This document shows, one piece after another, positions 23,063 to 31,460 of a stretch of DNA of 35,297 nt. Within the stretch, counting starts at the first letter, position 1. Each line of letters starts with the position of its first letter. Made by a program: the position numbers and the translations under genes. This DNA is from Bacteroidota bacterium (lineage in GTDB: Bacteria; Bacteroidota; Bacteroidia; Chitinophagales; LD1): positions 1 through 35,297 of the forward strand of contig CANJRM010000024.1 in assembly GCA_947476645.1 (NCBI GenBank). The letters are read 5' to 3'. The notes below the pieces were generated by a model, which saw nothing but the letters and a program-made list of their open reading frames with translations, did no database searches and was not told the DNA's origin.

Positions 23063-23251
23063 GGTTTGTTCGGGAGTTGTTCGGATTTGATTAACTCGAG
23101 TTTTGTTTTATTCAAGTGCTGTTTGGGTTTGGTAGCCAGCTATTCGGGTTTGTTCATGTGCTATTTGGATTTGTTCAACGCCTGTTCGTGTTTGGCAGGT
23201 GGTCGTTCGGGTTTAGCAGATGGTCGTTCGGGTTTGTTTTGGCTTGAAAAC
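23063..23251. repeat. Nine tandem 21-bp units, helically phased (GGTTTGTTC-type)
   Basis: Nine consecutive units start at 23063, 23084, 23105, 23126, 23147, 23168, 23189, 23210 and 23231, with a step of exactly 21 bp and no insertion or deletion. The most conserved part is the (T/C)GGGTTTG core at each junction; the rest is degenerate. Read on the plus strand in one frame (GTG at 23060, stop after 23263) it gives a 68-residue ORF with the heptad G-L-F-x-x-C-S. No promoter or ribosome-binding sequence is apparent, so coding is uncertain. The array lies in the 526-bp spacer between convergent ppiD and atpA. The last unit (23231-23251) is diverged, and a faint tenth unit precedes the first. Confidence 0.8.
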
Positions 23252-28595: not shown

Positions 28596-30035
28596 TTACA
28601 TTTTCACAAAACGCTTGCGCGCGATACCGTCCTTCATTTTTATTTCGGCTATGTAAACACCTTTAGCTAATTGATTAATATCAACGTGCTTGTTTTGAAC
28701 CTGTTTAGTTTGGCTCACTAAGCTGCCATTGGTGTTGTAAATATTTATTTCCATCAACTCCTGTCCGTTTGTTTCAATAAACAATTCATCATTGGCCGGA
28801 TTTGGATACAACATAATTGCCGCTTCCAATTTGTTTTCAACAATAGCCGAAGGTACCGAGTAGCAAATTTTTAGCGATGGATGTTTCGAAAAATCGGCAT
28901 GGTCGCTCGATGCAAAATTCAATCTGCGGTAATGTTGTTCCGTATTCAGCTTCAGTAAAAACCCGTAGTTATCGCTGTTGAGCATATCCTGCACCAATGG
29001 TTTTACATTAATATCAAGATAATTTTCAGTAGCATAATTTGACGCATGAACAGCTACCTGGTTAGCCGCTGCAGCATTGGGCTGATTGTTCCAGGTTACC
29101 GTTTGCTCATTCCAGGGGGCAACAACGCGCTGCAGCCAGGCTTCGTTCGAACCGCTTTGCTGCGAATGGTCGCCACTGCTCGAGCCCGTGTTTTCATATA
29201 AAGAAAGAAGTGCTGAATCAATAATGGCATTACCGGGAATACTTCCGAAATCAAATTTCAATAAACTTCTCACCAGCCCCGGAGTAGGCGTAAAAGTCCA
29301 GGCATTTGCCTGCAAATCGGCAAAGGTTCCGTAATTGGTGTTGGGATAAAGATCAAATATCATAGCATCGTAACCCGATTCACTATCGGTAAGTAAGGTA
29401 ACACAGGTAAGTTCGGGCAGCGTGTAATTAATTTGCATAATAGGGTGCAAAGTAGAGTCGGCATGGTCGCTCGATGCAAAAGTAAGTCTGCGGTAATGTT
29501 GTTCGGTCACCAGTTTCAGCAAAAATCCGTTGTTGGTTCCGCTGGCAATAATATCCTGCACCAAAGCTGTTACATCTATATTCGGATAATTTTCATTGGC
29601 AGAATTTGAAGGATGAACACTCGCCTCATTAGTGGCAGTAGCAGCCGGCTGGTTGTTCCAATTAATCGTATTCTCATCCCAAGCGGCAGTAACACGTTGC
29701 AGCACGGCAGCATTAGAGCCGCTCTGTTGCGAATGGTTTCCGCTGCTTGAAGAATAATTTTGAAATAAAGAAAGATAAGCCGAAGTAATAACGGCCTGTG
29801 GTGGAAGTGCCGAATAATCAAACTTCAAAAAACTTCTAACCACACCCGGTGTAGGCGTAAATGTCCAGGCATTGGCTTCTAAATCTTCTCCGGAACCAAA
29901 ATTAGTGTTGGGTTGAAAATCGAAAACCATAGCATCTTCACCCGAAGCCCCATCGGGTCTAAGGTTTAAACTGTATTGTGCATGAAGCACATCACCTGCC
30001 AGCAAAGTAACAAGAGCGAGGAAAATTCTTTTCAT
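28596..30035 (-). CDS. Secreted protein with two DNRLRE-like domains and T9SS sorting domain
   Basis: A 479-residue exported protein from the ATG at 30035 (MKRIFLALVTLLAGDVLHAQ, signal peptide); the longer frame adds MCFEILKNKKT ahead of it and is less likely. Two tandem copies of a DNRLRE-type beta domain follow (about 20-205 and 206-395). Each has D-A-M-x-F-D-x-x-P-N-T-N-x-G, LEANAWTFTPTPG or LQANAWTFTPTPG, a W-N-N-Q-P turn, and TEQHYRR-x-x-FASSDHAD. The C-terminal 80 residues are a T9SS type A domain (MLYPNPANDELFIE, INIYNTNGSLV, GVYIAEIKM). It is thus expected on the cell surface; a binding or matrix role is inferred. It is monocistronic with its own promoter boxes and terminator. The copy-to-copy similarity indicates a fairly recent internal duplication. 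Confidence 0.93.
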   Translation of the reverse strand: MKRIFLALVTLLAGDVLHAQYSLNLRPDGASGEDAMVFDFQPNTNFGSGEDLEANAWTFTPTPGVVRSFLKFDYSALPPQAVITSAYLSLFQNYSSSSGNHSQQSGSNAAVLQRVTAAWDENTINWNNQPAATATNEASVHPSNSANENYPNIDVTALVQDIIASGTNNGFLLKLVTEQHYRRLTFASSDHADSTLHPIMQINYTLPELTCVTLLTDSESGYDAMIFDLYPNTNYGTFADLQANAWTFTPTPGLVRSLLKFDFGSIPGNAIIDSALLSLYENTGSSSGDHSQQSGSNEAWLQRVVAPWNEQTVTWNNQPNAAAANQVAVHASNYATENYLDINVKPLVQDMLNSDNYGFLLKLNTEQHYRRLNFASSDHADFSKHPSLKICYSVPSAIVENKLEAAIMLYPNPANDELFIETNGQELMEINIYNTNGSLVSQTKQVQNKHVDINQLAKGVYIAEIKMKDGIARKRFVKM

Positions 30036-30065
30036 AGTTTTTTTGTTTTTTAAAATTTCGAAGCA

Positions 30066-30095
30066 CAAAAATAGGCTAAGCAGCCAAATGCCGAA
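30066..30095 (-). promoter_or_regulatory. Bacteroidota-type promoter for the DNRLRE gene
   Basis: On the minus strand TTC (30093-30095), exactly 19 nt, then TATTTTTG (30066-30073): full -7 match and one base off in the -33 box. The leader is about 24 nt. Confidence 0.55.
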
Positions 30096-30269: not shown

Positions 30270-30584
30270 ATCATCATATCTGTTCCTGAAATGCTGATGT
30301 CGAATGCAGTTATCATCATCTCCACACCCGACATGATGATATTGGATACTGACATCTTCATCTCCATGCCTGACCTAATGATGTCAGTTGCTGTTGTCAT
30401 CATCTTCGCACTCGACATAACGATGTTGGGTGCTGTTGTCATCATTTCTATCCCTGAAGTGATGATGTTCGATACGGACATCATTATCTCCGTTGCTGAA
30501 ATGCTGATGTTAAGTGCTGTTATCATCATCTCCGCACCCGATATGATGATGTCGGTGGCTGATACCATCATATCCGGTTCAGAT
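30270..30584. repeat. Fifteen tandem 21-bp units alternating ATGATGATG and ATCATCATC blocks
   Basis: The array is 315 bp, exactly 15 x 21, with no indel. Each unit is a 9-bp block plus 12 bp of the form TYN-NNN-NYN-GAN or GTT. The block alternates strictly: ATCATCATA/ATCATCATC types at 30270, 30312, 30354 and so on; ATGATGATG types at 30291, 30333, 30375 and so on, giving a 42-bp double unit. The plus frame from ATG 30291 to TAA 30587 (98 codons) and the minus frame 30571-30266 (101 codons) are both open across it, with heptads [MI][MI][MI]S-x-x-D on the plus strand. The blocks are complementary to their neighbours, so RNA or single strands could fold into serial hairpins. Whether it is coding is undecided. 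Confidence 0.9.
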
Positions 30585-30676
30585 TAAAGCTAATTGCCAT
30601 TTTTTACCAATGAAGCATAATTTTTTCTGTCTCGTTTTCAGGGTTTTAGAAAGCCGGATTTCACTGCGCATATAGG

Positions 30677-30706
30677 TTGCGTTCTGCGCATGCATACTTG
30701 CATTTG
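30677..30706 (+). promoter_or_regulatory. Bacteroidota-type promoter for the FN3 gene
   Basis: TTG (30677-30679), exactly 19 nt, then TGCATTTG (30699-30706), one base off TAnnTTTG. The leader would be about 130 nt and includes the palindrome GTTGCGCAAC (about 30783-30792). The repeated CTGCGCAT words at 30664 and 30683 overlap the spacer. Confidence 0.5.
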
Positions 30707-30842
30707 TAAATACAGCCCGCCTATATATAAAGGCAGGTGAAGCAATAAACAAAGTGCACTTGTTTACTGATGAACCCACCTTGTTGCGCAACAGTAGGCG
30801 GTGTTTACACTATTTATTTTTTCATTTTTAAATCTATCCACT

Positions 30843-31460
30843 ATGAGTCGAGTAAAAATTGATTTCAACAAACCCGTTACCGAACAGGTAGCAAAAAGCC
30901 GTGACCTTCAAACTAAAATCACTGCTAATCCTAATTACGTAACTCCTATACCTTCATTAGCTGAAATAAAAACAGCTACTGATGCATTGGAAAGCGCTTA
31001 CAACGATGCGCTGAATGGCGACAGAGCCAAAAAAGCTACCATGCGCATTACGCGTAAAGCATTAAAAGAGCTGATTGTTAAACTGGCAGATTATGTACAG
31101 ATAACCAGCGATGGTGATGAAACAAAAATTCTGAGCAGCGGATTCGGTGTGCGCAAACAACCCTCTCCGGCTTCGGTACCTTCTACTCCTGTAGATGTAA
31201 AAGTAACTGCTACAGAATTTGATTACGCATTAGACATTACCGCCAAATCGGTAAAAGGTGCTAAGAGTTATGTTTTAGAAATGTGTGCCGACCCTTTGGT
31301 TGAGGCAAATTTTAAACCCGAAGAAATGGGCACCAAGCCATCTATGAGGGTGAAGGATTTAAACCAGGGAACTAAATACTGGTTTCGTTTGCTCGCAATA
31401 AATGCAGCGGGTAAAAGCGGGTGGAGTGTTCCTCAAAGCGGAAGAACTGCACAGTTTTAG
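30843..31460 (+). CDS. Fibronectin type III domain protein, no signal peptide
   Basis: A 205-residue protein from ATG 30843 (MSRVKIDFNKPVTEQVAKSR); the upstream extension in frame is hydrophobic but short and lacks a start better than a non-ATG codon. Residues 1-100 are mostly helical (SLAEIKTATDALESAYNDAL, then TRKALKELIVKLADYVQITS). Residues about 115-205 form one FN3 domain: PSTPVDVKVTATE, strand Y-V-L-E-M-C, then GTKYWFRLLAINAAGKSGWS, the classical FN3 end. It appears cytoplasmic because no export signal is seen, which is unusual for FN3 in bacteria. It has its own promoter candidate and a strong terminator, and so is a single-gene unit. Function unknown. Confidence 0.82.
   Translation: MSRVKIDFNKPVTEQVAKSRDLQTKITANPNYVTPIPSLAEIKTATDALESAYNDALNGDRAKKATMRITRKALKELIVKLADYVQITSDGDETKILSSGFGVRKQPSPASVPSTPVDVKVTATEFDYALDITAKSVKGAKSYVLEMCADPLVEANFKPEEMGTKPSMRVKDLNQGTKYWFRLLAINAAGKSGWSVPQSGRTAQF

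What the first reader, a model, noticed from the sequence alone, without database searches (positions are those of the whole stretch)
30270..30584. Fifteen-unit 21-bp array with strictly alternating ATGATGATG / ATCATCATC blocks
Seen: 15 units of exactly 21 bp, zero indels over 315 bp, although individual bases vary. The 9-bp block switches between ATG- and ATC-type in every successive unit, so neighbouring blocks are mutually complementary. Both strands hold an open frame across the whole array, each closing just past its edge. Inference: either a small repetitive protein ([MI]3-S-x-x-D heptads), an array of sites in alternating orientation set on one face of the helix (21 bp = two turns), or an RNA that folds into a hairpin series whose loops allow register switching. 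The exact phase argues against a neutral minisatellite, which would usually gain indels.
Basis: partly seen in the sequence, partly recalled or inferred. Interest (0 to 1): 0.8.

Follow-up and report, generated by a model that had tools for sequence, protein, structure and literature searches.

The report
Intergenic 21-bp palindromic repeat arrays
A bacterium carries many intergenic DNA arrays whose repeat length is held near 21 bp (two turns of the helix) while their sequences differ from place to place, and similar arrays often sit upstream of one gene family, in some distant bacteria too; this array is one of them and probably works as DNA, not as a protein.

Summary
Confirmed: 15 in-register 21-bp units at 30270-30584, ATC- and ATG-type alternating in all 15. 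It is one of a class. In 835 kb sampled from the same genome, 23 of 24 noncoding tandem arrays of at least 80 bp have a 21-, 41- or 42-bp period, against 1 of 7 coding arrays. Unit sequences mostly differ between loci; only C57 and C107 share this one. Dyad symmetry is significant (p<=0.01) in 16 of 40 arrays, this one included. Codon-position bias is not significant and pairing columns do not covary overall, so protein and RNA-hairpin readings are weak. The FnIII-like gene family next door carries such arrays upstream in 26 of 59 usable copies, including Methylococcaceae and Pedosphaera; own-genome background is 22 of 562 genes. Two other arrays lie in blocks missing from sister species. Best reading: fast-evolving DNA elements whose spacing, more than sequence, is kept, working like BIMEs as a binding or topology platform. 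Function is inferred; neutral slippage with a ~21-nt step is a serious rival.

The parts
30270..30584 (.). focal array: 15 x 21 bp, alternating ATC-type (A) and ATG-type (B) units, dyad-symmetric 42-bp period
30585..30842 (+). 258-bp leader between array and FnIII-like gene; 30600-30842 aligns with three homologues at 83% mean column identity; holds a promoter-like stretch (Bacteroidetes -33/-7 motif recalled, not tested) and a possible structured 5' UTR
30843..31460 (+). FnIII-like gene (205 aa): N-terminal helices plus fibronectin type III fold; Pfam fn3 E 6e-5, just under Pfam's cut-off; member of the family that often carries such arrays upstream
28596..30068 (-). divergent neighbour: CBM96 / Por_Secre_tail protein (start codon of the listed ORF uncertain)
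23184..23236 (.). second 21-bp array of different sequence (2.5 copies), between convergent genes

Best explanation
Shown: the array belongs to a class of noncoding arrays in this genome built of ~21-bp modules (two helical turns), many of them dyad-symmetric, so that the module alternates in orientation and dyad centres recur every ~21 bp. Unit sequence differs between most loci while module length changes little. Two other arrays are missing from sister species, and arrays are enriched upstream of the FnIII-like gene family. Inferred: the array works as duplex DNA, as a row of dyad-symmetric sites on one face of the helix that a dimeric DNA-binding protein or a topoisomerase can occupy at any copy number. 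Upstream of the FnIII promoter it would buffer supercoiling or tune transcription, much as BIME-2 arrays bind gyrase in E. coli. Copies are added or lost in whole modules, which leaves the helical phase nearly intact.
For: Period class 20-22/40-44/61-64 in 23 of 24 own-genome noncoding arrays of at least 80 bp but 1 of 7 coding ones. Lengths 41 and 62 occur, so the rule is not codon-based. Dyad symmetry p<=0.01 in 16 of 40 arrays and in 8 of 16 further ones. In 38 arrays read in register (381 units, 8001 bp) 1335 differences from their own consensus and no phase jump within +-3 bp (these arrays were chosen because they read in register). FnIII upstream arrays of at least 70 bp in 26 of 59 copies; own genome 4 of 7 against 22 of 562 control genes, Fisher p=1.1e-4. 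The nearest G014 homologue of the gene has a 21-bp array in the same place without a BLAST match to the focal array. Among Methylococcaceae, L217 has a leader close to those of L215 and L216 but a largely different array (by eye).
Against: No binding protein was identified and nothing was tested for binding or expression. 18 of 40 arrays show no dyad symmetry at p<=0.05. Arrays also lie between convergent genes, where no promoter is expected. 33 of 59 FnIII copies have no array of 70 bp within 900 bp upstream, copies are related and not independent, and the association outside Bacteroidota is weak (5 of 22 against 5 of 65, p=0.07). Periods of 40, 41, 44 and 62 drift out of a strict 10.5-bp phase over several units. 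TRF finds some indels in 9 of 24 arrays, and 4% in the G014 array.
Confidence: 0.4

Rival explanations
1. Neutral or nearly neutral minisatellites: a replication or repair process in this lineage duplicates ~21-bp steps, perhaps helped by small hairpins, and intergenic DNA tolerates the result. The arrays do nothing.
For: Sequences mostly different between loci and blocks absent from sister species at two sites; higher-order repeats of 42, 84 and 126 bp show local block duplication; no overall covariation; arrays in every flanking-gene orientation; PMC4679880 (passages) cites work in which heptamers were the most abundant long simple repeats of 5-11 nt in most genomes and polymerase slippage was proposed.
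Against: Coding regions would tolerate a 21-bp step but their arrays have other periods (1 of 7 two-turn in the own genome, 0 of 10 in the other sets). Enrichment upstream of FnIII genes is not expected. Diverged arrays without phase jumps (selected arrays).
Confidence: 0.37
2. RNA hairpin array: transcribed in one or both directions, the ATC/ATG blocks fold into hairpins that can switch partner and act as a regulatory or structural RNA.
For: RNA folding z -4.25 (+) and -3.49 (-), 0 of 100 shuffles as good in each. One array of the family, C107, has more paired cells than expected (z 2.6), and L028 has 18 double changes.
Against: Over all arrays pairing columns do not covary (3155 against 3154.2; 40 arrays given, two of them without countable pairs; G017 fn2 has z -2.6). 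No Rfam match at gathering score in the window. The near-constant length is not needed for hairpins; any dyad-symmetric DNA folds well.
Confidence: 0.12
3. Small repetitive protein of heptads ([MI]3-S-x-x-[DE]), coded on one or both strands.
For: Both strands open; when the three homologous arrays are pooled by unit type, differences fall 42, 31 and 62 on codon positions 1, 2 and 3.
Against: Against column permutation the skew is not significant (p=0.23, 0.36, 0.22 in the three arrays). Lack of stops is expected in the + frame (P=0.53) and both frames are stop-free in 5.9% of neutral runs. Arrays of the same class have stops in all six frames (L053, L027, L021:14153) or periods of 41 and 62.
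Confidence: 0.06

Closest known systems
REP / BIME-2 arrays (repetitive extragenic palindromes in alternating orientation)
   Same: Intergenic, short palindromic modules, regularly spaced in alternating orientation, tandem clusters; BIME-2 is reported to bind DNA gyrase (PMC2817692, abstract and passages). CGTC-tagged REPs are reported from Bacteroidetes among other phyla (PMC3733652, passages).
   Different: No shared REP sequence: 21 of 27 own-genome arrays hit only themselves in the held own-genome stretches. GTAG and CGTC tags are not general: 0.09 and 0.07 per unit over 419 units against ~0.16 by chance, although L034, L157 (first array) and G016 C182 hold about one GTAG per unit. Spacing near 21/42 is what recurs.
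Heptamer repeats (LSSR; STRR of cyanobacteria, recalled; TAACTGA repeats of Beggiatoaceae)
   Same: Intergenic tandem repeats, 21 = 3 x 7; TAACTGA repeats also reported from five Bacteroidetes (PMC4679880, passages).
   Different: No 7-bp sub-period: lag-7 identity is 0.21 in the focal array; unit diverged, dyad-symmetric, alternating.
Promoter-linked tandem repeats of contingency loci (recalled, not looked up)
   Same: Repeat array upstream of members of a multicopy gene family.
   Different: Long diverged units near two helical turns; strain variation in copy number not tested here.

Membership tests
REP / BIME | extragenic location | tested here: met
   focal array lies between two genes; no ORF of 120 aa or more overlaps it
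REP / BIME | palindromic modules in regular alternating orientation | tested here: met
   dyad 0.54 against 0.40, 0 of 300 permutations; A/B alternation 15 of 15
REP / BIME | one sequence family in many copies per genome | tested here: not met
   focal sequence at three loci of the whole genome; 21 of 27 own-genome arrays hit only themselves in the held stretches
REP / BIME | GTAG or CGTC tag | tested here: not met
   0.09 and 0.07 per 21-bp unit over 419 units, chance ~0.16; focal array under 0.5 per unit; three other arrays near one GTAG per unit
REP / BIME | RAYT transposase in the genome | tested here: inconclusive
   one Y1_Tnp match, G000 C70, not examined further
REP / BIME | binding of gyrase or IHF | not testable with these tools
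   needs ChIP or gel shift
Heptamer LSSR / STRR | 7-bp unit | tested here: not met
   lag-7 identity 0.21, lag-21 0.49
Protein-coding heptad repeat | codon-position bias | tested here: not met
   p=0.23 against column permutation
Structured RNA repeat | compensatory changes between units | tested here: not met
   focal array 146 pairs against 146.1 expected; 3155 against 3154.2 over all arrays
Structured RNA repeat | known Rfam family | tested here: not met
   0 matches at gathering score in the window
CRISPR | near-identical repeats separated by unique spacers | tested here: not met
   the whole 21/42-bp unit repeats, no unique spacers; cas genes not searched

The most novel reading that the evidence does not exclude
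A class of intergenic DNA element defined by spacing and symmetry (a ~21-bp module, often in alternating orientation) and not by sequence, which recurs upstream of a multicopy FnIII-like gene family in several bacterial phyla and is rebuilt from new sequence as it evolves.
Probability: 0.28. Interest if true: 0.85.

Novelty: new variant of a known kind. Interest (0 to 1): 0.6.

Why it matters
Most known repeat elements are recognised by sequence. Here length and symmetry recur while sequence differs between loci and between close species, which points either to a protein or topology requirement largely blind to sequence, or to an unrecognised ~21-nt step in how some bacteria duplicate DNA. Either can be tested directly. 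It also gives a handle on an FnIII-like gene family that spans several phyla; the members scanned match no NCBIfam model above its cut-off.

Tried and rejected
DNA searches with the focal and C57 arrays found nothing outside the own genome in 39 relatives, 29 family genomes or 295 phylum genomes (there at most two candidates were scored in the genomes listed), so sequence homology alone does not show the class. The protein search over 298 genomes gave three weak outside hits (G016, G034, G215); G016 and G034 turned out to be 21/42-bp arrays of other sequence, which opened the period survey, and G215 is a 42/51/93-bp repeat that I set aside. Coding, RNA and covariation tests as above. A rule of any whole number of turns was rejected: no own-genome noncoding array and none of the 26 FnIII arrays has a smallest period of 31-32 or 52-53. 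Heptamer origin of the focal unit rejected (lag-7 0.21). Y1 transposase search inconclusive. FnIII genes in viral contigs: 79 pattern hits, no relative; plasmids: no match for the window protein. Pfam, NCBIfam and PHROGs for array neighbours gave fn3 and phage-tail models, besides weak sub-cut-off matches; none for the L170, L159 and L160 genes. The top 50 structure matches listed from solved structures are FN3 domains or proteins that hold one, and those from viral models are largely FN3 or tail proteins. Eight of the 67 unique FnIII genes were dropped from the 59 because less than 450 bp upstream was held; two of them (L179, L223) have 41-bp arrays. Paper searches were seen as listings with the start of each abstract (one search listed none); nothing there looked like this class, and only three papers were opened, for passages.

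Full report
Observation. The array is real and where stated: 15 units of 21 bp in one register, A (ATC-type) and B (ATG-type) alternating in all 15. Self-identity peaks at 42, 84 and 126 bp. Two homologous arrays lie elsewhere in the genome, around C57:1366-1680 and C107:8091-8367 (72-86% identity between the three); they add a third unit type, C, ATGATTAGAATCGTTGCTGTT. The gene after the C57 array was recognised as rpoB by eye from its translation.

It is one of a class. In 41 stretches of the own genome (835,297 of 3,559,474 bases) there are 24 noncoding arrays of at least 80 bp; 23 have a period of 21, 41 or 42 (L035 lists 11 as well as 21) and the exception is a 77-bp array. The 7 coding arrays have smallest periods of 36, 57, 60, 72, 78, 261 and 495; one counts as two-turn because a 42-bp row overlaps it. 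The same count elsewhere (noncoding arrays, of which two-turn): G034 5, 4; 17 genomes of the genus 3, 2; 3 family genomes 0; 16 order genomes 2, 0 in 196 kb; 4 class genomes 1, 1 (lists 14, 21 and 28 and is heptamer-based); E. coli K-12 50 kb, none. In these sets 0 of 10 coding arrays are two-turn. Units mostly differ between loci: of 27 own-genome arrays, 21 hit only themselves in the held own-genome stretches; the others are C24/C57/C107, L036/L158, and L174, which matches a place beside the L035 array.

Symmetry. With column permutation as control, which keeps period and composition, dyad symmetry is significant at p<=0.01 in 16 of 40 arrays and at p<=0.05 in 22 of 40; of 16 further arrays, some with 40-, 41- or 62-bp periods, 8 reach p<=0.01. 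A 42-bp period with dyads amounts to a 21-bp module alternating with its reverse complement; in the focal array this holds for 54% of positions. Arrays of 21-bp repeats without significant symmetry also exist (the four G034 arrays, L035, L036).

Constraint. Thirty-eight arrays read in strict register hold 381 units and 1335 differences from their own consensus over 8001 bp, with no phase jump of up to 3 bp (two arrays with fewer than three rows were left out). These arrays were picked because they read in register, so this overstates the case: in TRF's best alignments 15 of 24 own-genome arrays have 0% indels and 9 have 1-10%. Across loci the unit length itself moves by a base or two (20, 22, 40, 41, 44, 62), so a strict 10.5-bp phase is not kept everywhere.

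Not protein, probably not RNA. Pooled by unit type, differences fall 42, 31 and 62 on codon positions 1, 2 and 3, but against permuted columns the skew is not significant in any of 38 arrays (focal p=0.23, lowest 0.08). Zero stops in both open frames occur in 5.9% of neutral simulations. Some arrays have stops in all six frames. RNA folding is good on both strands (z -4.25, -3.49) and DNA folding moderate (z -2.12, 2 of 100 shuffles as good), as a dyad array would give; pairing columns do not covary over all arrays, with single excesses (C107 z 2.6) and deficits (G017 fn2 z -2.6).

FnIII-like gene. The gene at 30843-31460, 258 bp after the array, belongs to a multicopy family (8 places in the own genome) with N-terminal helices and an FN3 fold (model pLDDT 90.6, pTM 0.56). 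By record titles relatives occur in Bacteroidota, Methylococcaceae and other Methylococcales, Pedosphaera and Prosthecobacter, and one Planctomycetota MAG (43 loci). Of 67 unique copies 59 have at least 450 bp upstream, and 26 of these carry an array of at least 70 bp, all 26 in the two-turn class if L132, whose smallest period is 7 beside 21 and 42, is counted; one of them (L219, 20 bp, 63% matches) is marginal. In 16 of the 26 the near edge lies 209-301 bp before the start codon. In the own genome 4 of 7 usable copies carry one, against 22 of 562 other genes (p=1.1e-4); outside Bacteroidota 5 of 22 against 5 of 65 (p=0.07). The G014 homologue closest to the window gene (80% protein identity) has a 21-bp array at the same place; it does not match the focal array in BLAST but is 72% identical to that of the own C38 paralogue, and the leader between array and gene is conserved. 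G014 and G015 also have copies without an array (L183, L184). G016 has 21-bp arrays of other sequence upstream of rpoB, as C57 does; none of the other 24 rpoB loci has a comparable array in the held stretch, though nine list GCT/CTG triplet runs, three of them with a 21-bp row, and one has two copies of 22 bp.

Gain and loss. At two non-FnIII loci sister species lack the array and its surroundings: 283 bp in the own genome against 18 bp in G014 (L029), and 437 bp against 23 bp in G015 and 35 bp in G014 (L163). The first site could not be compared in G015 and G009, where the two flanking matches are not adjacent, and G009 has about 1.7 kb at the second, not examined. No target-site duplication was seen by eye.

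Identity of relatives. G014 C60 and G015 C27 have the contig lengths of JAPLES010000009.1 and CANJZE010000027.1, both titled Bacteroidetes MAGs; the JAPLES isolate name (LacPavin) suggests a lake. This is inference from matching lengths.

Conclusion. Best supported is a DNA element whose module length, and often symmetry, is kept while its sequence differs. A binding or topology role like that of BIME-2 is inferred; neutral slippage with a ~21-nt step is nearly as likely.

Noticed in passing
window 23184-23236: A second 21-bp array (2.5 copies, 87% matches) of different sequence between convergent genes.
   Followed up: partly
window 30600-30842: Leader of the FnIII-like gene at 83% mean column identity in four homologues, with a possible structured 5' UTR: 47 predicted pairs, 4 with double changes, but the covariation term is unfavourable (+2.81).
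   Followed up: partly
L170:10335-11024, L159:9106-9834, L160:12601-13335: Proteins of 229-244 aa next to 21/42-bp arrays with no Pfam, NCBIfam or PHROGs match at E 0.1; the L170 gene has three paralogues in the genome, one with a short 42-bp array upstream.
   Followed up: partly
L238, L239: Collagen-like 18/45-bp repeats (by eye) downstream of two of the four L170-type genes.
   Followed up: no
L004:994-1961: The rpoB-like gene is preceded by a HEAT-repeat-like gene (by eye) and the array; no rplL-sized ORF was listed between them.
   Followed up: no
G000 C70:5184-5528 (L241): The only Y1_Tnp match of the genome; not checked whether it is a RAYT.
   Followed up: no
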